Source: Glycomyces salinus (lineage in GTDB: Bacteria > Actinomycetota > Actinomycetes > Mycobacteriales > Micromonosporaceae). From it: a DNA stretch of 64,000 nucleotides. Shown piece by piece: positions 25,689 through 38,840 of the stretch. Made by a program: the position numbers and the translations under genes. A model generated the notes under the pieces. That model was not told the origin of the DNA, did not search any database, and saw only the letters and a program-made list of their open reading frames with translations. The DNA lies in NCBI RefSeq assembly GCF_016428645.1, contig NZ_JAELXW010000006.1, forward strand, positions 62,001-126,000, read 5' to 3'. How positions within the stretch are numbered: the stretch's first letter is position 1; each line of letters begins with the position of its first letter.

Positions 25689-27302
25689 TCATCCACCGGC
25701 CCTGACGGAGATCCGAGGCAGATACCAGACTCCGGCTGCGGCCACCGCGAGTGCGAACACCGCCAAGAGCGGCAAGGGATACCCCAGTGACATGCCGAGC
25801 GGCAGCTCGGCGTCGACACCCGCCCCGCTCGCCGCCGCGGCGGCCTCGGACGGGTCGATCGCGAACCTGTGGAGCGTGACCTGCCCACTCGGATCGTCGC
25901 CGACGGGATACTTCACCGACTGCCAGACCAAATCCTGAGCTCCGGCCAACCACACCAGGACGACCGAGAGAACCCCGGCCGGCCAGAATCCGCTCAGGAC
26001 CACGAGCCGGGCCCTTCTCCGGTCGACACCGGCCGCAACAGTCATCCGCCGCCGGTCCTCCAAGCCCCAGAACAGGGCGGTGAACACGAACAGAGCAGGG
26101 ATGCTGATCCAGGCCCGCGACAGCAGCGCGGCCCAACCGTCAAGCTGCCAGGTCTCGTGGAACCACGTCATGACGAGCGGCCCGGTGCCGACGAACAGCC
26201 ATGGCGCGAAAGGCAGCAGGAGCCAACGGCTGTGGCGCCCCAGCGGCCGCAGCACACCGATGGCGAACCCACCGACGGCGGCCACTGCCACGGAGCAGAC
26301 TGCGAGGAGCAGCGGCGGAAGCCACGTGTGGGCGACGACGGTCGCACGATCCGGGTAGTCGCCGTCGAGCGGGCCGGTCAGGTTCGTGACCCAGGGCCAC
26401 AGGCTCCACAGCACCGCGCCCAAGAGCAGCGTGGACACGACTCCGCTGATCGCGCCCCAGGGCACCCTCATCCGTTCCGCCACGCGCTCCGACCGAGCCC
26501 GGTACTCGAACCGCACCCGGCCGAGCACGAACAGCAGAGCGGCGCCGATCCCCAGCATCGCCAGCACCATGAACAGCACCGAAGACGCCGCGAGGCCGAA
26601 GCCGGGCGCCGATGACGAGTACAGGCCCTGAATCAGGGCGTAGGAGACAGGACTCAGCGCTGCGGCCTCCGGATCGAACGAGGGCAGCGCTACTACCTGC
26701 AATCCAACAGCTATCAGCGCCAGGACCGATATCCCGCCGCCCACGAGCGCCGAGATCACCCGCGTGGCCCCACGGAACACCGACATCCACGCCAGCACGC
26801 CCACACTGAGAATCACTCCCGAGCACCCGATCGCCCAAGGGAGCGATCCTGAACCGAAATCGTCCCCACGCACGGCCAGCCAGGCCGCAGCGACCCCGGT
26901 AGGCGCGAACACGACCGCCGGGACGCCCCAGACACCGCCGAAGACAACAACCGCCGCGCCGCCGGCACGGTGCACGCAATAGGCCAGTACCGGCGCCATT
27001 ACTCCACCGACGAGCACCGCTCCACCCGCCACCGGCAATACGTTCGACCACGACGACCCGAACGCCGGGTCATCGAACATCAACCGGTACCAGGCGAGTC
27101 CGACGAACTTGGGATCCGAACCGAACATGGTCCAGTCCTGCAGGCTCCGCGATACGGTCGCATAGGACGGGATCACATATGCGAGAACCGCGACGGCCCC
27201 CGCAACGGCGACACCAACCCACCCGATCAACCTACGGCGCAATCCGCCGCCCACATCGACTGCCGTGTCGCGAACCTCTGACTCATCGACGGCGAGACTC
27301 AT
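25689..27302 (-). CDS. Fused MalF/MalG-like ABC permease (two-domain membrane protein)
   Basis: 537 aa with about 12 TM helices in two six-TM halves. The N-terminal half begins like MalF-type permeases (YVIPSYATVSRSLQDW, then KFVGLAWYRLMFDDPAFGSS). Its end (GFGLAASSVLFMVLAMLGIGAALLFVL) also resembles a MalF C-terminus. The second half looks MalG-like but lacks a clear EAA loop. I infer a tandem permease of a carbohydrate-type importer. No ATPase or complete binding protein is adjacent. The ATG overlaps the stop of a short upstream frame (ATGA) that may be the stump of a partner gene. Confidence 0.5.
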   Translation of the reverse strand: MSLAVDESEVRDTAVDVGGGLRRRLIGWVGVAVAGAVAVLAYVIPSYATVSRSLQDWTMFGSDPKFVGLAWYRLMFDDPAFGSSWSNVLPVAGGAVLVGGVMAPVLAYCVHRAGGAAVVVFGGVWGVPAVVFAPTGVAAAWLAVRGDDFGSGSLPWAIGCSGVILSVGVLAWMSVFRGATRVISALVGGGISVLALIAVGLQVVALPSFDPEAAALSPVSYALIQGLYSSSAPGFGLAASSVLFMVLAMLGIGAALLFVLGRVRFEYRARSERVAERMRVPWGAISGVVSTLLLGAVLWSLWPWVTNLTGPLDGDYPDRATVVAHTWLPPLLLAVCSVAVAAVGGFAIGVLRPLGRHSRWLLLPFAPWLFVGTGPLVMTWFHETWQLDGWAALLSRAWISIPALFVFTALFWGLEDRRRMTVAAGVDRRRARLVVLSGFWPAGVLSVVLVWLAGAQDLVWQSVKYPVGDDPSGQVTLHRFAIDPSEAAAAASGAGVDAELPLGMSLGYPLPLLAVFALAVAAAGVWYLPRISVRAGG

Positions 27303-27430
27303 TCAGAAGTTCCGTTCCCCGTCCTGGCCTGGACCTCCCGAAGCCGCTCGGCGAACGGGTCGTTCCCCAAGGTGGAATCCACATAGGTACACCAATCTCG
27401 CACCGAGTGACCGGTCAGCAACCACAACAT
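27299..27430 (-). pseudogene. Truncated 3' end of the permease's partner gene
   Basis: A GC-rich frame whose last 43 codons (from ATG 27430: MLWLLTGHSVRDWCTYVDST...) end in a TGA overlapping the permease ATG. Going upstream, the frame loses coding character near 27480-27530, where the DNA turns AT-rich, and it closes at a stop. The pattern (hydrophobic patch, then an amphipathic helix ending REVQARTGNGTSE) resembles the C-terminus of a solute-binding or membrane protein. I infer that the operon's upstream gene was cut by the arrival of the AT-rich segment. Confidence 0.45.
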
Positions 27431-27495
27431 GATGACACCGAACAAGAAGTTCCGGAAATCCGACCCGGAAACGTTCCCATTGAGGCCAAAGCAAT

Positions 27496-27783
27496 CTATA
27501 ACATCTCCACGAAGGTGGCGTTTGCGACCAATTTTGGACCTTCATATACATCCATTCTTGCACCCTTCTCAAGATAAGGATCAACAAGTTCCCTTGCTAG
27601 AAAGTCTACGCTATAAATTCGCTTCAGATTTTGCAATATCCTGACTTCTTCTAGCATAACACTGACAATGTTTGTGCTACCTGTCGGACGAAAATTCAGA
27701 TCGACAAATACGGCAGTAGCCGCATAAACAACCCTAGAAGGTGGCCCACTGATCCGGCTCCCTCCTCGCGCGACTTCCAGCAA
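27496..27783 (-). CDS. AT-rich orphan ORF, possible immunity or remnant
   Basis: Up to 95 codons, with no clear start (TTG at 27783). The C-terminal 70 residues (from FVDLNFRPTGSTNIVSVM, then LARELVDPYLEKGARMD) look protein-like: mixed hydrophobic/charged, soluble, and translated from DNA much less GC-rich than its flanks. It lies downstream of the RHS toxin gene, where extra immunity genes and orphan toxin tips collect. It could be a broken immunity gene. Family unknown. Confidence 0.35.
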   Translation of the reverse strand: MLEVARGGSRISGPPSRVVYAATAVFVDLNFRPTGSTNIVSVMLEEVRILQNLKRIYSVDFLARELVDPYLEKGARMDVYEGPKLVANATFVEML

Positions 27784-28073
27784 ACAATGACTCGCCCTAC
27801 CGGATTCTCGCTATTTTCTATCATCACGCAACTCAATGGCTACCAGGAATCAAATATGCTCGCATCCCTCGGTCCAGCCGTTCGAATCTGGCACCACCAA
27901 ATCCGCCTACGACACACTGCGAAACCCAGACAGCACTACTCGGCGACGCACGAGGCGAAGACCGACATGGAGACATGGCGCGTGAGAGGCTTCTACCGCG
28001 ACGGAACCCTTCAGTTGATAGGTGCTTCAACACCCCTGCCAACGAAGTTCCCGTTGCTTCATTTACACCCTCA
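27784..28073. other. AT-rich stretch without a convincing gene
   Basis: 290 bp of mixed composition inside the toxin-locus debris. Frames of 87-96 codons exist on both strands but none has a ribosome site or family-like sequence. No transposase fragment is recognisable. Confidence 0.4.
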
Positions 28074-28331
28074 CTAGGCACGACACCACACTCCAATGCA
28101 CTTTGGAGAAGCCCTACTCGCGACCCCTTGCGCCCCAGCCAGATCCCTCACCCGAACGCCATTGACAGCACTATTCAGGTTGTCTGGATCACCTTGACCA
28201 CCAAAAATATCTGACAGCCCCTGCCTGGGGGTCACCCGACGATCTCTACTCGGCAATTTATCCGCGGCTACTTCCACGCCCACTACAGGCAATCCACCCT
28301 GGATACCGTTTAGCGACAGAATCAATATCAA
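28074..28331 (-). CDS. Unknown ORF coupled to the membrane immunity candidate
   Basis: 85 codons from a TTG whose bases overlap the TGA of the upstream four-TM gene (TTGA). The sequence includes LPVVGVEVAADKLPSRDRR and LSDIFGGQGDPDNLNSAVNG and ends CIGVWCRA; it is soluble and Gly/Asp/Asn-rich. TTG starts are rare, so coupling is the only support. It may be a second immunity component or a displaced RHS tip fragment. Confidence 0.35.
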   Translation of the reverse strand: MILILSLNGIQGGLPVVGVEVAADKLPSRDRRVTPRQGLSDIFGGQGDPDNLNSAVNGVRVRDLAGAQGVASRASPKCIGVWCRA

Positions 28332-28804
28332 ACATGGTCATTACCATGATGTTTTGACTTCCAGCGAGCTGGGATATACATCACTATCACTCCGGCAACA
28401 ATTCCCCCGAATTCTATAGTCAGCCCCATTGCGATTTCCCCATTCGCAACTGCAATAAATGCAGCGGCCATCAAAATCGCAGATGCCATAGAAGCGATTA
28501 CACTCAGAATATACTCAAATCCCTGAGCATTGAGAAATGTATAAGACTCTGACAGCTTCCTTGTTACAAAGGACTTGTATTTGGCCTCATTAGCAGTTAG
28601 TGGGGTGAGGAACTGCAATCTGGAGGAAAGCTTGGCATAAATCGCCCCGCCAGAAACTACAGCTACCGTGGCACACGCAACGAAGATCAATCCCTGATAA
28701 AGGAATTCAAGATTGCCTGAAAGTTGCCGAATAATTGCAAAAATTGAAATCGTGATAGAAAATGCAATACCATTATAGATCCAGCAAGACAACATTCTAT
28801 ACAT
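28328..28804 (-). CDS. Four-TM membrane protein, candidate immunity protein
   Basis: 158 aa with four TM helices (about 8-28, 36-56, 98-120 and 127-148) and a short basic C-terminus (RWKSKHHGNDHV). An excellent AGGAGG ribosome site lies 6-7 bases before the ATG. The gene is clearly AT-richer than the chromosome. It directly follows the RHS gene, the position normally taken by the cognate immunity gene in polymorphic-toxin loci. A membrane immunity protein would fit the membrane-active look of the RHS tail. I do not recognise its family. Confidence 0.65.
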   Translation of the reverse strand: MYRMLSCWIYNGIAFSITISIFAIIRQLSGNLEFLYQGLIFVACATVAVVSGGAIYAKLSSRLQFLTPLTANEAKYKSFVTRKLSESYTFLNAQGFEYILSVIASMASAILMAAAFIAVANGEIAMGLTIEFGGIVAGVIVMYIPARWKSKHHGNDHV

Positions 28805-28968: not shown

Positions 28969-31900
28969 TTAGCCTGCTGCTTCAATTGCTCCATCAATGC
29001 AATATCCACCATAGAACCCCAGCATTCCACCTCCCGCTATGCCGACAAAGGCCCCGGGGACACCACCAAGTGATCCGATAGACCCATAAATGGCCGCAGC
29101 TCCAATCGTAATCAGATTTCGCGCATGACCATTTATATGACCATACTCTTCTAGGGCCACAGCGTTCTGAATACATCCAATGGTGATACGTTCACCGTCT
29201 TCCCAAGCATTTTCCCAAACACCACCGTATGTGAGATCTTCGCAGATCGAGTCAGGCCCGCCCATCAATCTGCATTGTTCCTGGGTGAGCTCGTCGAATC
29301 CATCTACGATGCCATCCCAGCCGAAGTCCCACATATCCCCAGCGTCATCCTCTCCGGCCTGACCATCGAGGGCGGGTGGTGGTGTCGGTTTCTCTGTCGG
29401 GTAGTTGATGCCACCGCAGCTGCCGCAGCCGGTGCCGTTGTGAGCATCGAATGCGTCGCAGCCGTAGTAGTACGAGCAGCCGTTCGCCGGATCGAGGACA
29501 TCGTGGTTCGACGGCGCCCAGGAGTCTTCACCGTAGTACTTGCCTCCGCAGCTCCCGCAGCCGGTGCCATTGTGTGCATCAGCGGACTCGCAGCCGTAGT
29601 AATACGAGCAGCCGTTCGCCGGATCGAGCACGTCGCTGTTGTTGCCCCCACTTCCGGATCCGCCGCCCCCGTATCCATCGATCTTGGCAGGAATTAGCCC
29701 CGTTGGATCGGTGAAGGTGACTGGCGAGTTCAGAGAATAGGCGTAGCCGTTGAGTTGCTGGGCGTTGGTGTAAACGGCGATAGGGTCGACGGAACTGAAT
29801 CGACCGGTGGTCGGGTCGTATTCTCGGGCACCGAGTGTGGTCAGGCCGCTGGTTTCGTTTTCGATGCCGCCGACGAAGCCGCGTTGGTCGGGCCATTCGC
29901 CTTTGGTGAGGCCGCGTTGGTTGCCGAAGGGGTCGAAGCGGCGGACGGTCGCGGTGAGATTACCGCCGTTGACGACCCATTGATCGGTGCCGTGGTGGTC
30001 GCCGCTGAGCCACTGGATGTGGCCTCTGCCGATGCGCAGTCCGATCGTTTCGTTGCCGTGCCGGTAGTAGCGGCGGACTTCGATGGTGTTCTGGTTGGCG
30101 TCGTAGGTCAGCTCGTATCCTGCGGCCCAGGCGGTGATATCGCCGTTCGGGTCAATGCGGGCGAGGCGGTCCCCGTCGGCGTCGTCGAAGAAGCTGGTGG
30201 TCTCCTCGCCGTTGGCGACGGTCTCGAGGCGCCCAGTAGGGGCCCAGTCGAGGATGGACAGGTCGCCGGCGCGGTCGATCGAGGTGGTGAATCCGGCCTC
30301 GTTGTAGGTGTAGACGTCTCTTTCGCCGCCGTTCTCTTCGGTGGCGACTTCGGTCAGCGCGTGGCCGGTGGACTCGTAGGTGTAGGTGTCGGTCATCCGC
30401 CCGCCGGTGGTCCAGCGGGTTTCGGAGGTGCGGTTGCCGGTCAGGTCGTACTCATAGGACGACCAGTACGCCCCTGGTCCGCCGATCACCGATTCACTCG
30501 GCGCCTCGGCGCATTCACCGGCCCCGGCCTGGGCCCATGCCTCGGTCAGCCGGTTGCGGTGATCGTACTCGAAGCACTGCGTCTCTGGTTGGAGCGCATC
30601 AGCGGAATGGACCGGTTCGTCAGTGATCGAGAGGATGTTCCCGGCCTGGTCATATTCGTAGGCGAGGGCGGCGATGCCGTAGTTGGTGCCGTCGAACTCC
30701 CCTGGCTTGAGCTTGTCGAAGTAGAACTCGGCGAGCCTGCCGGTGCCTTCTTCGTAGATCCAGGTCTGCCATACTTGTCCGGAGCCTCCGCTGTTGTCGT
30801 TTGGGTCGCCGAGGCGCCGCTGGAGCAGTTGGCCGTATGGTGAGTACACGGCCTTGTCAACATAGACTGTGCTGAAGAAGTCGCGGCTCTGGCTGGCGAC
30901 GCGGCTCGGTTGCCCCATCTCGTTGTAGCCGTAGAGCATCACCTCGGAGTGCAGGTCGCCGGCTCCGACGGTGCCGTAGTATCGCAGGCTCCCGTCGGGG
31001 TGGTAGGTGTACTCCTCCCAGTATTCGCCTGCCAGGGGCCCGGCCGCCTCGGGCAGGAAGGTGGAGGTCTCCTTGGGTCGCCCGGCCTCGTCGTACTCGT
31101 TGATCGCCTTTGTCCATGCCTGGCCGTCGATCCAGTTGGTGGAGGTGTGCGGCAGGCCGATCCCGTTTTCAGCGCCGTCGTATGTCCACTCGGACAGCAG
31201 GGTCCCGTTGTCGATGCCGCCTTCCCATCGGGCGGTCTTGCGGCCAAGCGGGTCGTACTCGTAGGACAAGGTGGTCCCGATCGCGTCGGTGGTCGAGGTC
31301 ACCTGGTCGGCGGCGTTGTATTCGGTGGTCGAGTGTCCGGTGTCGGGGTCGTCGGCCGCGATTTGTCGGCCTCGCAGGTCGTAGCCGAAGGTCCATTGGT
31401 TCTCTGCCGGGTCGGTGACTGTCGCCAGTTGTCCGCGATTGGTGTAGTCGTAGCTGGTGGCGTCGAAGTCTCCGGTTGGTTCGTTGCCATGGAATTGGCG
31501 GAGTTCGACGGTGCGGCCACGGGCGTCCTCGAGCGTTGCGGTGGCCGAGGCGCCTTGCGGCGGCGTGACCGTGGTCTGCCAGAAGTCGTCGTGGCCGCCA
31601 TAGCTAGTGGTGGTGCGCCAGCGTTCGTCGTCCTTGACCACGAAGATCTCGTCGGTCACGCGCCCGGCGCCGTCGTAGATGTATTCGGTGCGGGACACGT
31701 CGTTGGTGCGGCTGATGCGCACCAGGTCGCTGGTAGGGCCGGAGTCGTTGTTGAAGTTCGCTCCTGAGATGTAGTCGACTTGTCCCCTCGAGTTGTAGAC
31801 GGTCTGGGTGATCAGGCGTCCGTCGTAGGTGTCGGCTTGGGTCTGGCGGGGACGGAGCAGGCCGTCGTAGAGTGCGATCTTGGTCAGATACGACTCGTTC

Positions 31901-34764
31901 CAGATCATCGTCTCGGTGGTCACCGCGCTGGGTTCGGTGTCGGAGACGGCGTAGGAGAACTTGAGGTTGGGGACATCGTCCGCGCCGCGGTCCTGCCCGG
32001 GCAGCCAGACCGCGGTCCGGCGGCCGAGCGAGTCGTACTCGACCGCCGTGACCTGGCCGCCTGCGCTGGTAGCGGTCAGCATGGCGCCCCAGGTCGGCGC
32101 ATAGGTCGCCTCCTGCACGTGGCCGAGCGGGTTGGTGGTGGTCACCGCAGTCACCGGGCCACTGGCATCAGCCGGAGTGTAGGCGGTTGTCGTCTCTTCA
32201 CCGAGGGCGTCGATGGCGCTGGTTTCGCGGCCAAGCGAATCGAAAGTCGACTCGGCAAGCGTGACGTAGATGGGGCCTGCGTCCCATTCGTCGAGGATCT
32301 CGGACCGGGTCATCAAGCCTCGCGTCGGTGCGGCACCGAAGTCGTGGCCATCATAGTAGGCGCGCACGTCGCTGACCACATCGTCCGGGCGACTGGGATC
32401 GGCATCGCAGGGGACGGCGACCGTCTCGACACGCGCGGGTGCGTCCAGGATCCAGGCGGCGGTGTTGTCGGCGTACTCGGTCCGTATGCACTGTTCGTCG
32501 TCGTCGGCGGTCGTGTCGCCGTGGTGGCTGACTTCGATCCCGCGGCCGTAGTCGTCGTAGGTGGTCGTGGTCCGGGTCGTGCGCCAGGCGGTGTCGGAGA
32601 GTCTGGTGCGGGCGTCGACCCGGCTCGGTCCGGTCATCCACGCGTCCAGTTCGCCGCCGTCGTGGTCGCGGGTGGCGGTCTTCCGGGACCAGTAGCGGGT
32701 CGTGGTCGAGCCGATGACCGTTGTGTCGTCGTAGGAGATCTGCTCCCAGACCTGCCCGGCCAGGGCCTCGTGGTCGGTGACGGTATTCCCATGTGTGTCG
32801 GTCAGCTCGACGCTGCGCTCGCCGCCGTCGGGCAGGGGTTGGCCGTCCATGCCGCGGAAGTAGCGGGTGGCCGACCGCAGCTGCGGACCGGGGTCTTGCG
32901 GGTCGCCGACGCGGGTGGTCACCTGCGCATAGCCGCGCCACTGGTTGTAGGTGCGCTTGTCGTCCTCGGTGAACTCCGAGTCATCCCAGGCCCACAGGAC
33001 AGCCGTGCCGCCCCCGGCGGTCGAGTAGTCATAGAAAGTGCGAACATCGTCGCCCCCGCCGGTGGAGTCGGACTCGATCACCTCGGCCACGACGTACTTG
33101 TGGAAGTATGCCTCGACCGGCTCGTCGACACCCTCGGGCGTGTACCGGGCCGGATAGCAGCGCCGGGTGTTGTCCTCGGGGTCGGCCGGGAGGCTGCCGG
33201 CCGAGCAGTCCGGTGGGGAGTAGGTGATCGAGACCGTCCCGCCGGTCTCGTTCTTGACCGAGGTCAGCCGCGGCCGCCAGACCCCCGGATTGGCCGAGCC
33301 GTCGTCGACCCGGTTGGGCAGGAACGTAGCGCCGAACTCGACCGGCGGCATCGTCTCGCTGCCGCCGCCCAGACCGGTGTGCTGCACACTCGACAGCCAC
33401 AGGACCACCTGGGAGGAGTCCCCGTAGTCCTTGAACTCATGGCTCAGACTCCAGGAGTCGACGTCGTCGAACGCGCCCGCACCGGCGTTCCAAACGTAGG
33501 TGGTGATCTCTGTCAGGCGTTTGGTGGAGAAGAACACCGGCGAGTACTGCTCGCAACCGGTACCGGACTCGCAGTCCAGATCCCAAGGCACGTCCGGCCA
33601 GTTCGACGACTTCGGGTCGCCGGTGCTGTTGTAGCAGTCCTCCAGGCAGCGATCGGAGACGTTGAACCGGACCTCTCCGGTCGGTTCGACCGAGTTGTCT
33701 GAGCGTAGGCCGTACTCGATCCGCTTAAGCCAGCCCGAGCGGGTGTAAGAAACCGCACTGGATTCGCTGTCGACCGCCGGTGCGTAGTAGCCGGTCTCGG
33801 TGGCGTAGTAGTAGCGGGAGGCGTTGCCGTGGACGTCGACGACCTCATCGAGCATCCACCGGTATGCCTGCTTGCAGTGGGAGCCTTCGAAGTCGCCGGA
33901 GGAGTGGCACGGTTCGCCGGAGTGGTTGCCGAACACCGGCACCGTCCACCGCGAACGCGACTCGCTCGGCTCGGAGGCGAAGAAGTACTGGGTGCCATCG
34001 GTGGTCGTCACCTTCCACCGCTCACTGGTGGAGGCCGACGGCGAGGCCGCCGAGCCGAGCAGTTCGATCCGCCAATTGGCGTCGGAAGCCGCCCGCCACT
34101 CCCCCGAGTCGTCATCGAGGACCAAGGCCGTGTTAGTGCCGTTCAACGACATCGTGATCGATGGTGACTCGTCGTCCCAGCACAGGTCACCGGTGGGATC
34201 CTCGCCGTTGTTGCCGTCCTGCTCGCTCTCGGCGCCGCAGGAGGTGTAGGACCGCTCGATGAACCCGGGCGAGTAGTTCCAGCCGTCGCCGACCCAGGAG
34301 GCCTGATTGTTCGTCCCCGAGGTCAGCCCGTCATGGCTGGCCGAGGAGTACGACAGCGCCACATCCGGACTCGGACCGGTCGCCGGCGGCACCCGCATGC
34401 CGTAGGTGTAGGAGTAGGCTCCTGAAGAGCCGCCCTGCGTCCACGACCCCGCCGAAGACAGATCGGTGGCCGTCCAATCCCCCGAACCGGCGGCAGTGTC
34501 ACTCGTCCCGTCCCAGCTCCGGGCATTGTCCTCGAACGCCGACTCAGCAGCCCCGACCGACGAGACCGACGTCGAGCCGAATTGCTGCGGATCGCGCTGG
34601 AAGTCTTGAGCCCAGGCCGGGCCCGTGGTCAGCAACGTCATCGACACGACTGCAGCAAGCGAGACCGCGGCGGACTTACGGGCTGTGGAACCTATCCGGG
34701 ATGGACTCATTGGGGCGCTCCGGTACTCGGGTCGTGAGTTCGAGGTCTGCTGGGGCATCATCAC
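28969..34764 (-). CDS. Secreted RHS/YD-repeat polymorphic toxin
   Basis: 1931 aa. Signal peptide about 28-53 (SLAAVVSMTLLTTGPAWAQD). An SpvB-like N-terminal region (PDVALSYSSASHDGL) is followed by a long YD-repeat array (units such as YDSLGRRT, YEYDPLGRKT, YDLRGRQIA). The RHS core (YDPTTGRFSSVDP ... DPTGL) ends near residue 1690. The variable tail of about 240 aa has a Gly/Ser linker and two 44-aa Cys-rich repeats. An acidic Trp-rich stretch and a C-terminal glycine-zipper hydrophobic segment (ITIGAAAIYGSIGSLGG) follow. Known RHS/WapA proteins encapsulate a C-terminal toxin and kill neighbours by contact. The ATG overlaps the LamG gene stop (ATGA). Confidence 0.85.
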   Translation of the reverse strand: MMMPQQTSNSRPEYRSAPMSPSRIGSTARKSAAVSLAAVVSMTLLTTGPAWAQDFQRDPQQFGSTSVSSVGAAESAFEDNARSWDGTSDTAAGSGDWTATDLSSAGSWTQGGSSGAYSYTYGMRVPPATGPSPDVALSYSSASHDGLTSGTNNQASWVGDGWNYSPGFIERSYTSCGAESEQDGNNGEDPTGDLCWDDESPSITMSLNGTNTALVLDDDSGEWRAASDANWRIELLGSAASPSASTSERWKVTTTDGTQYFFASEPSESRSRWTVPVFGNHSGEPCHSSGDFEGSHCKQAYRWMLDEVVDVHGNASRYYYATETGYYAPAVDSESSAVSYTRSGWLKRIEYGLRSDNSVEPTGEVRFNVSDRCLEDCYNSTGDPKSSNWPDVPWDLDCESGTGCEQYSPVFFSTKRLTEITTYVWNAGAGAFDDVDSWSLSHEFKDYGDSSQVVLWLSSVQHTGLGGGSETMPPVEFGATFLPNRVDDGSANPGVWRPRLTSVKNETGGTVSITYSPPDCSAGSLPADPEDNTRRCYPARYTPEGVDEPVEAYFHKYVVAEVIESDSTGGGDDVRTFYDYSTAGGGTAVLWAWDDSEFTEDDKRTYNQWRGYAQVTTRVGDPQDPGPQLRSATRYFRGMDGQPLPDGGERSVELTDTHGNTVTDHEALAGQVWEQISYDDTTVIGSTTTRYWSRKTATRDHDGGELDAWMTGPSRVDARTRLSDTAWRTTRTTTTYDDYGRGIEVSHHGDTTADDDEQCIRTEYADNTAAWILDAPARVETVAVPCDADPSRPDDVVSDVRAYYDGHDFGAAPTRGLMTRSEILDEWDAGPIYVTLAESTFDSLGRETSAIDALGEETTTAYTPADASGPVTAVTTTNPLGHVQEATYAPTWGAMLTATSAGGQVTAVEYDSLGRRTAVWLPGQDRGADDVPNLKFSYAVSDTEPSAVTTETMIWNESYLTKIALYDGLLRPRQTQADTYDGRLITQTVYNSRGQVDYISGANFNNDSGPTSDLVRISRTNDVSRTEYIYDGAGRVTDEIFVVKDDERWRTTTSYGGHDDFWQTTVTPPQGASATATLEDARGRTVELRQFHGNEPTGDFDATSYDYTNRGQLATVTDPAENQWTFGYDLRGRQIAADDPDTGHSTTEYNAADQVTSTTDAIGTTLSYEYDPLGRKTARWEGGIDNGTLLSEWTYDGAENGIGLPHTSTNWIDGQAWTKAINEYDEAGRPKETSTFLPEAAGPLAGEYWEEYTYHPDGSLRYYGTVGAGDLHSEVMLYGYNEMGQPSRVASQSRDFFSTVYVDKAVYSPYGQLLQRRLGDPNDNSGGSGQVWQTWIYEEGTGRLAEFYFDKLKPGEFDGTNYGIAALAYEYDQAGNILSITDEPVHSADALQPETQCFEYDHRNRLTEAWAQAGAGECAEAPSESVIGGPGAYWSSYEYDLTGNRTSETRWTTGGRMTDTYTYESTGHALTEVATEENGGERDVYTYNEAGFTTSIDRAGDLSILDWAPTGRLETVANGEETTSFFDDADGDRLARIDPNGDITAWAAGYELTYDANQNTIEVRRYYRHGNETIGLRIGRGHIQWLSGDHHGTDQWVVNGGNLTATVRRFDPFGNQRGLTKGEWPDQRGFVGGIENETSGLTTLGAREYDPTTGRFSSVDPIAVYTNAQQLNGYAYSLNSPVTFTDPTGLIPAKIDGYGGGGSGSGGNNSDVLDPANGCSYYYGCESADAHNGTGCGSCGGKYYGEDSWAPSNHDVLDPANGCSYYYGCDAFDAHNGTGCGSCGGINYPTEKPTPPPALDGQAGEDDAGDMWDFGWDGIVDGFDELTQEQCRLMGGPDSICEDLTYGGVWENAWEDGERITIGCIQNAVALEEYGHINGHARNLITIGAAAIYGSIGSLGGVPGAFVGIAGGGMLGFYGGYCIDGAIEAAG
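29414..29638 (-). repeat. Two tandem 44-aa Cys-rich repeats inside the RHS tail
   Basis: In-frame repeats offset by 132 bp. Each encodes DVLDPANGCSYYYGC, a variable 4-5 residues, then DAHNGTGCGSCGG. Every unit has four Cys with C-x5-C-x10-C-x2-C spacing, suggesting a disulfide or metal knuckle. The two copies are highly similar at DNA level, which indicates recent duplication. Confidence 0.85.
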
Positions 34765-37700
34765 GGCACCACCAAATCTGGGTCATATCTCGATGCAATG
34801 ACCGTCTCCGGCAGCGCGCCCTTCCAGACGATGACGTCGTCCACCGCACCGTTCAGCGGGTTCAAGAGGGTGGTGTCATCTCCTGGAAGGGCAGCACCGA
34901 TCGCCATGGGCCCGAACGAGTCGAACCCGACTGCCCCGGTCGCGGTCGCTTCGAGCTCCCCGTTGACGTAGAGGCGCACTTCTCCCTTAGCCAGGTCGTA
35001 GACGCCTACGAGGAGGAACCACTCGCCTGGGGTCGAGGAAGTCTGCGAGCTGGCAGTGGCTGGACTGCTGTCGGCGGTGTCACTGGGAACCGTCATGGCC
35101 CAGGTACCATCCGACCGGTGTTCAAGGGAGAACGCCGCGCTCTGGGCATCGTTCTGGGCGATGACGACCTGGTCGGTACTGGTGTCGTTCAGCCTCACCC
35201 AAGCAGCGACGGTGTACGACTCATCGGTGTTCAGTACCGGTCCGTCGGTGTGGGCGTAGCCGCCACCGCCGAGCTCGAGCGCGAGGGCTCCGTCATTTTT
35301 GCCCCACCAGCCTTCGGTCCATTCGTAGTCATCGACCAGGGTGAGATCAGATCCTTTGTCGGACCAGTCCTCGCCGCCGCCGTCGAGGTCGAGTCCCCAC
35401 CAGGCGGCGAGTTCGGCGGGCGGGTCGCCCATCATGCCGGAGATCTGGTCGGCATCGACCGGGCCGCGCCACAGGCGGACGTCATGGAGGGAGCCGGTCA
35501 GGTGGCTCCATCTGTTCGTCGCTCCATTGGCGCTGCACCCGACCACGGTCGCACCGAAAGCCGCCCACGGCGAGTCAGGGCCCGTGCGTGTGCCTTGCAG
35601 TGCTCCGTCGACGAACAGGCGCATCTCGTTCACGGCTGCGTCGTAGACCACTGAAAGGTGGTACCAGCGGTCGGCCTCGACGGCGGCATCCGACAGGACG
35701 GTCAACCACGACGATTCACTCGGAGGAGCATCGACCCCGTGCATCGCGAACTGCCACTTACCAACCGAAGCCGCATAGCGAAGCCGAAAGCCCGGCCGGT
35801 GGTCCCCCGCGATCGAGACCACGGTGGCGTTGTCCGACAGCGAATCCAGCTTCACCCAGCCCGCAGCGGTGAAGGACCGATCGGTCGCCACCGCCGGCTC
35901 CGGGAATTCCAAGCAGGTCGAACCGTCCAGCTCAACGGCACCCGAGGGGCGCTGGTAGGCGTCCTCGCCAATGGTCACACCAGAGGGGATATCCAGATCG
36001 CGACCATGGACGGAGGCGTCGGTGCCGCCATCGCGGAACTCCCAGTGCGCCTGTTCCGACGCGGTCGGCAGATCAACCATCGCCCCCTGGATTTGGTCGT
36101 CGGTCAGCAGCCCCTGCCAGATCCCGACCTGATCGATCGCACCGTCCACGAAGTGACTCGTGCTTCCCGAAGCGCTCACCAGGCATCCGAGGCCGAAATC
36201 GGACTCGGCCCGCCAGGGGGTGAAGTCGATCTCGCGCTCTGCGGCCAGCTCCCCGCCCAGGTAAAGGCGAGTTATTCCCGCGTCAGGGTCATAGGTTGCC
36301 GCGATGTGCTCCCATTGGCCGAAGTCGACCGTGCCGGCCGCCGAAACGCTGTTCCACTCATAGTCGGCTGACAACACCGAGAAGCGCCACCTACCGTCAT
36401 CGGCCGCGTATTGGATCTGGAAGGCCGAGTGGTCTTCACCTACCTGCATCAATGCCTTCTCATAGCCGTCGGCCGAGTCAAGTCGGATCCAAGCCGATAG
36501 CGAATAGGCCCGGTCGGTCTCGATCACCGGTTCACCGGAGGCCAGACACGTGTTGCCGTCAAGGACGAGCGCCGAGTCGGGTCGACCATCACGGTCGGGC
36601 TCGAATGTGACATCGCCGGAGATCGGGCTCAGGTCGTTGCCGTGCCCGGAGTCATCAAGGGTGTCGCCCTCGAATCGCCAGGTCGCCATCGGCGTCGCCG
36701 GGACGTCGTTGCCGACGAAGAAGGTGAACGTCCTTGAGTCCGACTCGTTCCCCGCCTTGTCGACCGACCGCACGTACAGCACATGCCGCCCGGCCGACAA
36801 GTCACTACCAGTGACGGTCGCCGTCCCGTCCGAGCCCACCTCTTGGTCGTAGGTGTTGGTCTGCCACGAATACTCGAACCGGTCGACCCCCGAGCTGACA
36901 CCATTCACCTCGGGGTCGGAAGAGGACAAGGCGATCTCGACGGTGTCACCGGCACTGAACGGCCCGGTCGAGTCCGGTGCGATTTCGGGCCTGGTCGGCT
37001 TGGTGTGGTCGACCTTGAACCGGCATGGCGGTGTCCACGGTGTGGCGATCGAGGAGTCGGTCGCACTGATCGCGCGCGCCACCCAATGGTAGTAGCCGTC
37101 AGGCAACGCCGCCGACGACGGCAGCGACTTCGTCCGGCGATGCCCCTTCGACAACACCCCTGACGTCCAGTCGTAGACCTTGGTCGCCCCCGCGCCCGAA
37201 GTCCACACCCGCGCCTGCCACCGGACCTGGCTGGACTTGGACGAGATGTAGGCGCTCAGGCCGGGCCGACCAGTGTTGATCCACGGCGACGCACCGAAAT
37301 CATCGGTGCACGACATGCCGTTGATCTCAGTCCGCTTGGGCTGGTACGGCAGGACGTCGTAGAGGATCTCCACATGCGCGTAGGAAGCATCGAAGCGATT
37401 CCAGTACCGCAGGTCCGGAGAAGGGAACTCGGTCGGGGGCCGCAGCGCCACATACAGATGCTTGCCCTCGGCCGCGTCCACGGTATCGATGTACGACCCG
37501 ATCCCGAAGTCGACGTAGGCCGACCCGCCGCAGCCACCGCGCCCGTTGTCGGCCTCCCCGGTCGTCCGCCGCGTCGAGGCGTAAGCGGTCGGCTGGTCGT
37601 TCCAGGTGTCCCCGGAGGCCGAATGGAATGGCTCGGCCCGGTACAGGTGCATATTGCCGTTGTCACACAGCGCCGAGTGCCGCTGCAGAAAGGAGACCGT

Positions 37701-38840
37701 GGCGCTCGAGGGGATCCGGTAGTCGCTCCGGGTGACTCTGGAGACGTCGAACCGGAAGTAGGAGCGCATCCGGAACGGTGTCGAAAGGCAATCGGCGCTG
37801 CTGTTCCACGAATCACACGCCTGCCCGACCCCGGCATCCCCGTAATAGTCCTTCTCGGTCAGATGCGAGGTCTTCCAATAGCTGGTGTTCTCGTACCGGC
37901 TGGAGACGGTGATCCACCCGTTCGTATTCGGCGCCCACACCGGATCGATCGTCACCGGGTACACCGTGTCCGGCCCCTCCAGCAGGTCGCGGTCGGGGAA
38001 CAGCCGCAGGTCCGACCCGTCCAGTTCCACACCCACCACAGCGGGCTCGTCGTCGCTGGCCGCCGCGAACGTCGATGCCTGCTCGCTCACGTCTGGTTCG
38101 GACGAGTCCCACATCTGCGGCGGCGCCGCCCCCGCGAACAGCTCTCCCGAGTCAGCAGTGGTCAGCTCGATCCCGCCGGCCTCGTTGAGCGCGGCTTCCA
38201 GACCGGAGGTCTCGAAGCCGAACTCGATCGCCTCCAGCGCCGGGTCAGCCGCGGCCTCGGCGGAATTCACGACCAAGTCGTGGGCGAAACCTTCGGCCGA
38301 AACGGTCACCACCAAATCGACGCCGTCCATGACCTCGGGATAGGTCGCGGTGGGTCCGTCGAGTCCGGGCTCGGGCAGGTCCTGGGGCCAGGCGAGCGCG
38401 AACGACCGCTCCCCGTCGGACAGTGACGCCAGCGTACTGGCTCCTCCGCCGGAGAATGCCATGTCCGATACCGCGTTGGCCGGCCTGACCATGCCGTCGG
38501 CATCGAGCTGCAGGGTGGTGTCGACCGGTGCCCACTGCCCCGAATCATCCATTGCCCGGAACGGCTCCAGAGCCGCCGAGAGTTTGACCGTCCCGTCCGG
38601 CTGCGCGACCGAGGTGCCCCACGGGGTCTGCTCGTCGAGGATCTCCACCTCCGAGTCGCACAGCTCGGCTAGCGTTACCGCCTCGAACTCGGTCTGCGCC
38701 TCGGTCGGCACCGGATCCGGACACGCGGCATCGTCCGGTTCCTCGGCTGAAGTCGGCGTTGCGGCCAACGGCACCAGGACGGCGACCGACAGGACTGTCA
38801 CGAGACCGCGGCGGAGCAGGGGAGAGTGGTTGTGGGGCAT
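34761..38840 (-). CDS. Secreted LamG-domain protein paired with the RHS toxin
   Basis: 1359 aa. Signal peptide about 9-32 (GLVTVLSVAVLVPLAATPTSAEE). A DNRLRE-type region with jelly-roll-like segments (about 290-480) and an Ig/Big-like bacterial domain (about 600-680, VDKAGNESDSRTFTF) follow. Three LamG/concanavalin-like domains complete the protein (about 690-880, 885-1080, 1090-1350), each with an LxAWIRLD/AAWVRLN-type strand. LamG partners regularly precede YD-repeat proteins in actinomycetes; probable roles are wall or carbohydrate binding and presentation of the toxin. The stop overlaps the RHS start, so the two are made together. Confidence 0.8.
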   Translation of the reverse strand: MPHNHSPLLRRGLVTVLSVAVLVPLAATPTSAEEPDDAACPDPVPTEAQTEFEAVTLAELCDSEVEILDEQTPWGTSVAQPDGTVKLSAALEPFRAMDDSGQWAPVDTTLQLDADGMVRPANAVSDMAFSGGGASTLASLSDGERSFALAWPQDLPEPGLDGPTATYPEVMDGVDLVVTVSAEGFAHDLVVNSAEAAADPALEAIEFGFETSGLEAALNEAGGIELTTADSGELFAGAAPPQMWDSSEPDVSEQASTFAAASDDEPAVVGVELDGSDLRLFPDRDLLEGPDTVYPVTIDPVWAPNTNGWITVSSRYENTSYWKTSHLTEKDYYGDAGVGQACDSWNSSADCLSTPFRMRSYFRFDVSRVTRSDYRIPSSATVSFLQRHSALCDNGNMHLYRAEPFHSASGDTWNDQPTAYASTRRTTGEADNGRGGCGGSAYVDFGIGSYIDTVDAAEGKHLYVALRPPTEFPSPDLRYWNRFDASYAHVEILYDVLPYQPKRTEINGMSCTDDFGASPWINTGRPGLSAYISSKSSQVRWQARVWTSGAGATKVYDWTSGVLSKGHRRTKSLPSSAALPDGYYHWVARAISATDSSIATPWTPPCRFKVDHTKPTRPEIAPDSTGPFSAGDTVEIALSSSDPEVNGVSSGVDRFEYSWQTNTYDQEVGSDGTATVTGSDLSAGRHVLYVRSVDKAGNESDSRTFTFFVGNDVPATPMATWRFEGDTLDDSGHGNDLSPISGDVTFEPDRDGRPDSALVLDGNTCLASGEPVIETDRAYSLSAWIRLDSADGYEKALMQVGEDHSAFQIQYAADDGRWRFSVLSADYEWNSVSAAGTVDFGQWEHIAATYDPDAGITRLYLGGELAAEREIDFTPWRAESDFGLGCLVSASGSTSHFVDGAIDQVGIWQGLLTDDQIQGAMVDLPTASEQAHWEFRDGGTDASVHGRDLDIPSGVTIGEDAYQRPSGAVELDGSTCLEFPEPAVATDRSFTAAGWVKLDSLSDNATVVSIAGDHRPGFRLRYAASVGKWQFAMHGVDAPPSESSWLTVLSDAAVEADRWYHLSVVYDAAVNEMRLFVDGALQGTRTGPDSPWAAFGATVVGCSANGATNRWSHLTGSLHDVRLWRGPVDADQISGMMGDPPAELAAWWGLDLDGGGEDWSDKGSDLTLVDDYEWTEGWWGKNDGALALELGGGGYAHTDGPVLNTDESYTVAAWVRLNDTSTDQVVIAQNDAQSAAFSLEHRSDGTWAMTVPSDTADSSPATASSQTSSTPGEWFLLVGVYDLAKGEVRLYVNGELEATATGAVGFDSFGPMAIGAALPGDDTTLLNPLNGAVDDVIVWKGALPETVIASRYDPDLVVP

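What the first reader, a model, noticed from the sequence alone, without database searches (positions are those of the whole stretch)
28969..29710. RHS tail with duplicated Cys-rich knuckles and a glycine-zipper C-terminus
After DPTGL the 240-aa tail has two 44-aa repeats with C-x5-C-x10-C-x2-C and then ITIGAAAIYGSIGSLGG-type helices rich in GxxxG. The hydrophobic Gly-rich end resembles class II (cerein 7B/lactobin-like) bacteriocins. I infer a pore-forming or membrane-inserting toxin delivered by an RHS shell; I know of no described RHS toxin with this Cys repeat.
Basis: partly seen in the sequence, partly recalled or inferred. Interest (0 to 1): 0.7.

Follow-up and report, generated by a model that had tools for sequence, protein, structure and literature searches.

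The report
RHS protein with swappable membrane-toxin tip
A bacterium appears to carry a secreted shell protein whose exchangeable end is probably a membrane-piercing weapon against rival bacteria, with a membrane protein next door that likely protects the producer; it is a new version of a known kind of bacterial weapon.

Summary
In detail: a 1931-aa RHS protein (28969-34764, minus) has, after DPTGL, a 241-aa tail with two C-x5-C-x10-C-x2-C units (period 44 aa) and a Gly-rich, 41-residue charge-free stretch at its end. But the two features belong to different parts. Third-position GC falls from 0.85 (core) and 0.77 (Cys-repeat linker) to 0.36 (last 70 aa) and 0.42 (next gene). A homologous tip in another genome of the genus sits behind a Lys-rich linker without Cys. 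So the Cys repeats look like linker; the exchangeable toxin is about the last 95 aa. In 35 of 36 RHS tails of the genus, 0 of 13 tails with Pretoxin-HINT but 9 of 22 others have a neighbour with two or more hydrophobic segments; so do 6 of 6 low-GC3 hydrophobic Gly-rich tips (3 of 22 other low-GC3 tails). The pairing was not significant in 57 tails from other genera of the family. Best reading: a membrane-depolarising Rhs toxin, working like Tse5 or EsxX, in a secreted, probably actinobacterial chassis. New variant of a known kind; activity untested.

The parts
34761..38840 (-). Upstream partner gene, 1359 aa, signal-peptide-like start (by eye), three Laminin_G_3 stretches, Ig-like domain; its stop overlaps the RHS start (GTGATG), suggesting translational coupling
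   Evidence: homologues in the 4 other genomes searched, each just before the RHS with the most similar core
28969..34764 (-). RHS protein, 1931 aa (GTG start, in-frame ATG next to it), Sec-type signal peptide by eye (...GPAWA-QD, residues ~1-52), RHS repeats and Rhs_assc_core
   Evidence: RHS_repeat 3.6e-19; TIGR03696 61.1 bits, cut-off 32.5
29695..29787 (-). Core end with DPIA-x22-DPTGL: the two Asp of the Rhs autoprotease motif are kept (published form DPXG-x18-DPXG); predicted self-cleavage after GL
   Evidence: (Asp pair with the same spacing found in 24 of 35 genus RHS), motif from PMC10684867 passages; cleavage is inference
29503..29634 (-). Cys repeat 1 (44 aa), C-x5-C-x10-C-x2-C; linker
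   Evidence: linker GC3 0.77, near the core's 0.85
29410..29502 (-). Cys repeat 2 (conserved over 31 aa); linker
29254..29409 (-). Pro-rich then acidic stretch between Cys repeats and tip (transition in composition)
   Evidence: GC3 0.56 over 29182-29385; sequence
28972..29253 (-). Exchangeable tip module (~94 aa), homologous to the tip of L149; Gly-rich hydrophobic end with Cys 1864 and Cys 1922 either side of it; proposed membrane toxin
   Evidence: (score 87, shuffles 36.8 +/- 6.5, 0 of 1000)
28996..29118 (-). 41-residue charge-free Gly/Ala-rich stretch, proposed membrane-inserting hairpin
28328..28804 (-). Proposed immunity gene, 158 aa, four hydrophobic segments (7-25, 39-57, 102-120, 124-142); GC 43%
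   Evidence: homologous fragment in L055
28810..28815 (-). AGGAGG ribosome-binding site of the immunity gene, 5 nt before its ATG
   Evidence: upstream sequence printed

Best explanation
The locus encodes a secreted polymorphic toxin of the RHS type. Shown by sequence: a signal-peptide-like start, an RHS core with the autoprotease Asp pair, an upstream overlapping LamG partner, a variable tail, and an adjacent multi-segment gene of foreign composition. Inferred: the RHS shell is exported by Sec and held at the producer's surface with the help of the LamG partner; the shell cuts itself after DPTGL and holds the tail; the Cys repeats form a disulfide-braced spacer; on meeting a target, the last ~95 residues insert as a Gly-packed helical hairpin (closed by Cys 1864-Cys 1922) into the target's membrane from outside and, alone or as oligomers, leak ions and depolarise it. 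The producer and its kin are protected by the four-segment membrane protein at 28328-28804, which would block insertion or assembly in their own membrane. Because the target is reached from outside, the tail needs no HINT release domain and no cytosol-entry step.
For: Tip and next gene share a composition unlike the core (GC3 core 0.85, Cys-repeat linker 0.77, tip 0.36, immunity 0.42). Tip homology to L149, another RHS tail in the genus (0 of 1000 shuffles; z 9.4), whose linker is unrelated. Both tips are followed by 157-158 aa proteins of the same layout: two hydrophobic segments, 44 or 49 residues, two more. Four loci with a 66-68% identical core and the same LamG partner (45-49%) have different tails, all with HINT. 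In named plasmid records the ten best listed matches to the protein end at residues 1689-1695, that is at the tail border. Genus census, 35 of 36 RHS hits: HINT in 13 of 13 of one class and 0 of 22 in the rest; neighbours with two or more hydrophobic segments 0 of 13 versus 9 of 22 (P 0.013), or 9 of the 16 with any adjacent ORF (P 0.0012). Low-GC3 tails that pass the hydrophobic-tip rule: 6 of 6 with such neighbours, other low-GC3 tails 3 of 22 (P 0.0002). Tip homologues L067 and L073 have homologous neighbours (z 20 and 29), which supports the pairing of tip and neighbour.
Against: No activity is shown. In the held-out sample from other genera (57 of 60 tails usable, 50 with an adjacent ORF) the same rule gave 1 of 5 versus 2 of 45 (P 0.28), so the pairing of hydrophobic tips and membrane-type neighbours is shown only in this genus. 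Without setting aside the seven conserved GTQ/GTD/GTE tails (hydrophobic end, no plausible adjacent immunity gene, GC3 0.94-1.0), the genus test is 6 of 13 versus 3 of 22 (P 0.05). The rule was written after I had seen the genus tails. Three multi-segment neighbours follow tails without a hydrophobic tip (L070, L147, L276), so such a neighbour does not prove a pore. The neighbours of our tip and of its homologue L149 cannot be aligned (z 0.1), nor can those of the related tails L074 and L078 (tails z 7.7, neighbours z -0.4). GxxxG density is not above composition. The single-sequence model of the tail is uninformative (mean pLDDT 37).
Confidence: 0.7

Rival explanations
1. The Gly-rich C-terminus is a membrane anchor or translocation element and is not itself the killing part, as the N-terminal glycine zipper of the DNase effector Tde1 serves delivery.
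For: Gly-rich hydrophobic ends without a plausible adjacent immunity gene occur in seven conserved RHS of the genus (L148, L268-L270, L272-L274), and Tde1 uses a zipper for entry (PMC10240207, abstract).
Against: Here nothing follows the Gly-rich stretch, and Pfam shows no enzyme domain before it. The tip has foreign composition together with its neighbour gene and occurs behind another linker in L149, unlike the seven anchor-like tails, whose GC3 stays at 0.94-1.0 to the end.
Confidence: 0.12
2. The tip or the stretch before it is an unrecognised enzyme acting at the membrane or cell wall (for example on lipids or lipid II), and the membrane neighbour blocks it there.
For: In the same genus L276 carries a DUF6973 tail (PF22322, 5.5e-11) and still has a 147-aa neighbour with three hydrophobic segments; so a membrane-type neighbour can go with a soluble tail. 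Two Asp and one Glu are among the columns shared by our tip and L149, so an acidic site is not excluded.
Against: 18 of the 34 columns that are identical in our tip and L149 are Gly and none is His, Lys or Arg (only two sequences); no Pfam family reaches its cut-off, the best matches at E up to 10 being DUF6969 (0.05) for the tail and C19orf12 (0.6) for the last 73 aa.
Confidence: 0.12
3. The tail is a decayed or orphan tip without activity and the 158-aa gene is unrelated.
For: Full-length matches to the tip profile were found only in this genome and one other among 354 family genomes, and only in this one in a phylum sample of 296.
Against: Both reading frames are open; the Cys repeats show 7 synonymous to 3 non-synonymous codon differences; the neighbour has a strong ribosome site and a homologous fragment in another genome (L055, 0 of 1000 shuffles).
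Confidence: 0.06

Closest known systems
Tse5 / Tsi5 of Pseudomonas aeruginosa (Rhs pore-forming T6SS effector)
   Same: RHS shell, Asp-pair autoproteolysis motif, C-terminal tail acting on the membrane (proposed for ours), membrane-bound immunity (PMC10684867 abstract, section 10 and passages; PMC12744356 passages)
   Different: Tse5 is a T6SS effector; ours has a Sec-type start and a LamG partner. Relatedness of the toxin sequences was not tested.
EsxX and TelE (LXG, type VII-secreted glycine-zipper toxins)
   Same: C-terminal Gly-rich stretch; EsxX is toxic from outside as well as inside and is countered outside by the polytopic membrane proteins ExiCD (PMC12744356 summary and passages; PMC10434224 abstract)
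   Different: Other delivery domain (LXG); our GxxxG count is not above composition; a soluble immunity of the ExiAB/TipE kind was not sought beyond a Pfam scan of four small downstream ORFs, which matched nothing.
CDI ionophore toxins (CdiA-CT EC93 type)
   Same: Exchangeable C-terminal module that dissipates membrane potential, with a putative glycine-zipper motif as the only shared sequence element, and very variable immunity (PMC11630599 abstract and passages)
   Different: Delivered by CdiA through receptors of Gram-negative cells, with a separate entry domain and a predicted five-helix bundle
CdzC/CdzD of Caulobacter (glycine-zipper, bacteriocin-like)
   Same: Gly-zipper proteins held on the cell surface, small transmembrane immunity protein CdzI (PMC5380434 abstract and outline)
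   Different: Type I-secreted two-protein bacteriocin, not the tip of a large RHS protein
RHS polymorphic toxins with HINT and laminin-G domains (Zhang et al. 2012)
   Same: Variable tip, immunity genes, laminin-G domains proposed to anchor the toxin to the wall (PMC3482391 passages)
   Different: Our tail has no HINT and the LamG domains are on a separate upstream gene; the only pore-forming family named in the passages I saw is Tox-WTIP, defined by other motifs

Membership tests
RHS/YD-repeat polymorphic toxin | RHS repeats and Rhs_assc_core above curated cut-off | tested here: met
   PF05593 69.1 bits (cut-off 22); TIGR03696 61.1 bits (cut-off 32.5)
RHS/YD-repeat polymorphic toxin | Same core with different tails in relatives | tested here: met
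   L059-L062, 66-68% identical core ends, different tails
RHS/YD-repeat polymorphic toxin | Aspartyl autoprotease motif at the core end | tested here: met
   Both Asp kept, DPIA-x22-DPTG, but the Gly of the first DPXG is Ala and the spacing is 22, not 18-19; cleavage not testable here
RHS/YD-repeat polymorphic toxin | Adjacent immunity gene that neutralises the tip | tested here: inconclusive
   Adjacent gene of fitting kind and composition; neutralisation not testable
Tse5-type T6SS Rhs pore former | T6SS loading parts (such as PAAR) in the protein | tested here: not met
   No such Pfam match in P0001 at E up to 0.1; Sec-type start instead (by eye)
Tse5-type T6SS Rhs pore former | Tail forms pores in membranes | not testable with these tools
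   needs electrophysiology or liposomes
Class II (cerein 7B/lactobin-like) bacteriocin | Match to a bacteriocin family model | tested here: not met
   No Pfam bacteriocin match listed at E up to 10; none in NCBIfam at E up to 0.1
Class II (cerein 7B/lactobin-like) bacteriocin | Small precursor with double-glycine leader (recalled) | tested here: not met
   The segment is the end of a 1931-aa open frame without internal stop
Glycine-zipper membrane toxin (EsxX/TelE) | (G/A/S)xxxGxxxG or GxxxGxxx(G/S/T) near the C-terminus (PMC12744356) | tested here: inconclusive
   4 occurrences in the last 73 aa, not above composition (P 0.11); 12 in the last 73 aa of L149, not tested against shuffles
Glycine-zipper membrane toxin (EsxX/TelE) | LXG delivery domain | tested here: not met
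   No such Pfam match in P0001
Zinc knuckle/ribbon | Match of the Cys repeat to a zinc-binding family | tested here: not met
   Only Zn_ribbon_recom at E 5.3, 7.9 bits against cut-off 25.3

The most novel reading that the evidence does not exclude
Secreted actinobacterial-type RHS proteins are a general launcher whose tail layout encodes where the weapon acts: tails with a HINT domain carry enzymes meant for the target's cytosol and pair with soluble immunity, while tails without HINT carry bacteriocin-like membrane toxins that strike from outside and pair with multi-TM immunity. The tip described here belongs to a small, recently exchanged family of such Rhs-delivered membrane toxins.
Probability: 0.33. 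Interest if true: 0.65.

Novelty: new variant of a known kind. Interest (0 to 1): 0.45.

Why it matters
The pore-forming Rhs toxin that my literature searches turned up is a Gram-negative T6SS effector (Tse5). A secreted RHS chassis that swaps enzyme tips for membrane-active tips, with matching immunity types, would show how one launcher serves two target compartments and would give a testable rule for predicting the target of unannotated RHS tails. The tip-immunity pair is small and easy to test.

Tried and rejected
Tail as a known family: Pfam, NCBIfam, PADLOC, PHROGs, PDB sequences and plasmids gave nothing credible (best PHROG E 0.013 over 26 residues, not pursued). Relatives of the tail in viral contigs: none by exact peptide patterns. 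Profile of the two tips in the genome-contig collection: 59 pattern matches, none confirmed. In 354 family genomes 8 had E up to 0.01; six of these cover only Gly-rich positions 65-109 of 120 and were not inspected further; in the phylum sample one extra hit (G758, positions 53-106) was not inspected. In the first tail searches of 296 class and 150 family genomes the matches other than our own were weak and partial (E 0.007 and above); nine of these loci were looked at and none resembled an RHS tail.

I translated all matches and ranked them by similarity (81, 36); the 25 and 12 printed were low-complexity Gly/Cys runs or chance frames, none like an RHS tail. The scan is incomplete and says only that I found no relative.

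Structure: single-sequence AlphaFold2 models of tail (mean pLDDT 37) and immunity protein (57, all helical) are too poor for fold searches, so none was run.

Held-out test of the tip-immunity pairing in other genera failed. I chose its 60 places by hand from the capped list: the best listed place of 40 genomes and 20 further places. Reasons for the failure may be my crude gene choice (longest ORF starting within 250 nt) in GC-rich DNA and that several hydrophobic tails there are of other kinds, but these are explanations after the fact. Three of the 60 (L089, L103, L106) had no stop before the end of the stretch, and one genus tail (L271) was cut by the contig end; all four were dropped. Seven of the 57 had no adjacent ORF by the rule and were left out of the 2x2 test. 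The first genus count, on 24 tails, was 6 of 7 versus 2 of 17 (P 0.0013); the 35-tail counts replace it. A Fisher test with 9 of 15 (P 0.0008) left out L148 because I judged its 388-aa neighbour frame spurious; with it the count is 9 of 16 (P 0.0012).

Rejected: metal knuckles (no family support, exported protein); class II bacteriocin membership; the Cys repeat as the toxin.

Full report
What is there. The finding lies at the end of a 1931-aa open frame on the minus strand (28969-34764). The protein starts with a Sec-type signal peptide (by eye), matches RHS_repeat (3.6e-19) and, just below its cut-off, SpvB in Pfam and Rhs_assc_core in NCBIfam (61.1 bits, cut-off 32.5). The core ends in DPIA-x22-DPTGL. 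Published Rhs autoproteases carry DPXG-x18-DPXG, and Tse5 is cut at Leu1168-Ile1169 just after its second Asp motif (PMC10684867, passages), so a cut after our DPTGL is likely but not shown. The tail is 241 aa. The gene overlaps the stop of an upstream gene that encodes 1359 aa with three Laminin_G_3 stretches. All 112 plasmid records with a match to the protein at E up to 1e-30 come from genera that I recall as actinobacterial (Streptomyces 104, Embleya 3, Herbiconiux 2, Nonomuraea, Sinomonas and Arthrobacter 1 each), so an actinobacterium is likely.

Observation. Both units of C-x5-C-x10-C-x2-C, their 44-aa period and the Gly-rich hydrophobic end are confirmed. Ten codons differ between the conserved parts of the two units, 7 of them synonymously, so the unit seems to have been kept by selection. 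The charge-free run of 41 residues is unusual for the tail's composition; the GxxxG count is not.

Two parts with different histories. Third-position GC is 0.85 in the core, 0.77 in the linker with the Cys repeats, 0.56 in the next stretch, 0.36 in the last 70 codons and 0.42 in the neighbouring gene. Thus the Cys repeats go with the core, and the tip goes with the neighbour. The one homologous tip that I found, in RHS L149 (first fetched as L052) of another genome of the genus, agrees: its last ~100 aa align to ours (score 87; shuffles 36.8 +/- 6.5; 0 of 1000), but its linker is Lys-rich and has no Cys. Full-length matches to a profile of the two tips occur in G000 and G401 alone among 354 family genomes and in G000 alone in a phylum sample of 296; genome contigs and viral scans by peptide patterns found none.

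The neighbour. The gene at 28328-28804 begins 164 nt after the RHS stop, with AGGAGG five bases before its ATG. It encodes 158 aa with four hydrophobic segments at 7-25, 39-57, 102-120 and 124-142. The gene after the L149 tip encodes 157 aa with segments at 5-23, 38-56, 106-124 and 126-144. The two proteins do not align (z 0.1), but their two-loop-two layout is not seen in the other six multi-segment candidates examined. Of the three pairs of related tails, one pair has homologous neighbours (L067/L073, z 20 and 29) and two have not (ours/L149; L074/L078). A 96-codon frame that runs off the end of contig C6 of genome G305 resembles the second half of our neighbour (score 78, 0 of 1000 shuffles; open end; contig end); whatever lay before it is not in the assembly.

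The tip is exchangeable. Four RHS loci with core ends 66-68% identical to ours follow homologues of the same LamG partner (45-49% identity; in G401 that match is in two pieces with stops) but end in different tails with a HINT domain. Plasmid-borne relatives match the core, and the ten best listed end at residues 1689-1695.

Census of the genus. TIGR03696 finds 36 RHS places in 18 of 22 genomes. I analysed 35; L271 was cut off by its contig end. Pretoxin-HINT is found in 13 of the 13 tails that I had sorted by eye and regex as HINT, in 0 of 11 others and in 0 of the remaining 11. A neighbour is defined as the longest ORF starting within 250 nt. Neighbours with two or more hydrophobic segments follow 0 of 13 HINT tails (10 have none, 3 have one) and 9 of 22 others (P 0.013; 9 of the 16 with an adjacent ORF, P 0.0012). 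A simple rule for a hydrophobic Gly/Ala/Ser-rich tip, written for after I had seen most genus tails, picks 13 of 35: six with multi-segment neighbours (ours, L149, L067, L073, L074, L078) and seven conserved tails that begin GT(Q/D/E), have no adjacent ORF by the rule (six) or an implausible 388-aa one (L148), and keep a GC3 of 0.94-1.0 to their end, whereas the 28 other tails end at 0.67 or less. Counting all, 6 of 13 against 3 of 22 (P 0.05); setting the seven native-composition tails aside, 6 of 6 against 3 of 22 (P 0.0002). The last test uses a group that I defined after seeing the data. L277 (one segment by the rule) was counted as negative.

Against the pattern. In 60 RHS tails from other genera of the family (57 usable, 50 with an adjacent ORF), the same rule gave 1 of 5 against 2 of 45 (P 0.28). 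The rule is therefore shown for one genus only. Also, L276 pairs a DUF6973 tail with a three-segment neighbour, so a membrane-type neighbour alone does not mean a pore.

Mechanism. The best account is a membrane-depolarising tip presented by a secreted RHS shell. Steps shown: shell, tail, exchange, foreign tip-neighbour pair, multi-segment neighbour. Steps inferred: export, surface retention by the LamG partner (Zhang et al. propose such anchoring, PMC3482391 passages), self-cleavage, disulfide bracing of linker and hairpin, insertion from outside, depolarisation, and blocking by the neighbour. The nearest worked examples are Tse5 with membrane-bound Tsi5, and EsxX, which is toxic from both sides and is countered outside by the polytopic ExiCD (PMC12744356 passages; PMC10684867 abstract). 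CDI ionophores share with each other only a putative glycine-zipper motif (PMC11630599 passages), so lack of a family match is not surprising. Tde1 warns that a zipper may serve entry instead (PMC10240207 abstract).

Novelty. The held library was searched for glycine zipper with toxin, immunity and polymorphic terms (24 papers, 20 listed), Rhs with pore-forming and Tse5 (11, 10 listed), Rhs with Actinobacteria and related terms (8), 'Rhs repeat' with Micromonospora (1), Rhs with glycine zipper (17), rearrangement hotspot with Gram-positive, depolarisation and WapA terms (20, 15 listed) and polymorphic toxin with Glycomyces (0). No listed title or abstract start reports such a tip or Cys repeat in an actinobacterial RHS. 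I saw most papers only as listings, seven in abstract, section or passages, and subscription papers are missing. I class the locus as a new variant of a known kind.

Noticed in passing
L067 (G000:C174) and L147 (G000:C144): The same genome has two more RHS loci, each followed by a multi-segment neighbour; L067's tail is homologous to L073's, and their neighbours are homologous too (z 20 and 29).
   Followed up: partly
L070 and L277: Two similar-looking Gly/Ser-rich, strand-like tails with 119-122 aa hydrophobic neighbours; possibly a beta-type membrane toxin. Similarity seen by eye only.
   Followed up: no
L276:3893-4597: DUF6973 tail (PF22322, 5.5e-11) next to a 147-aa protein with three hydrophobic segments: an enzyme-like tail with a membrane-type immunity candidate.
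   Followed up: no
L148, L268-L270, L272-L274: A conserved RHS class whose tail starts GTQ/GTD/GTE, keeps host-like GC3 to the end, ends in long hydrophobic Gly/Ala-rich stretches and has no plausible adjacent immunity gene.
   Followed up: partly
Genus RHS tails, first ~100 aa (for example L064, L067, L074) and L134: A recurring post-core Cys-rich piece (CIDGDCSYHN...) in several tails, also once in another genus (L134); 14 of 24 genus tails and 11 of 57 held-out tails have four or more Cys in the first 100 aa.
   Followed up: partly
27303-28327: Lower-GC (53%) stretch between the immunity gene and a high-GC gene (25689-27302); four ORFs of 85-95 aa there have no Pfam match; possibly remains of older tips or immunity genes.
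   Followed up: partly
G305:C6 end (L055, L280): A contig ends inside a homologue of the immunity gene, next to a transposase-like ORF (by eye); the assembly may have broken at an RHS repeat region.
   Followed up: partly
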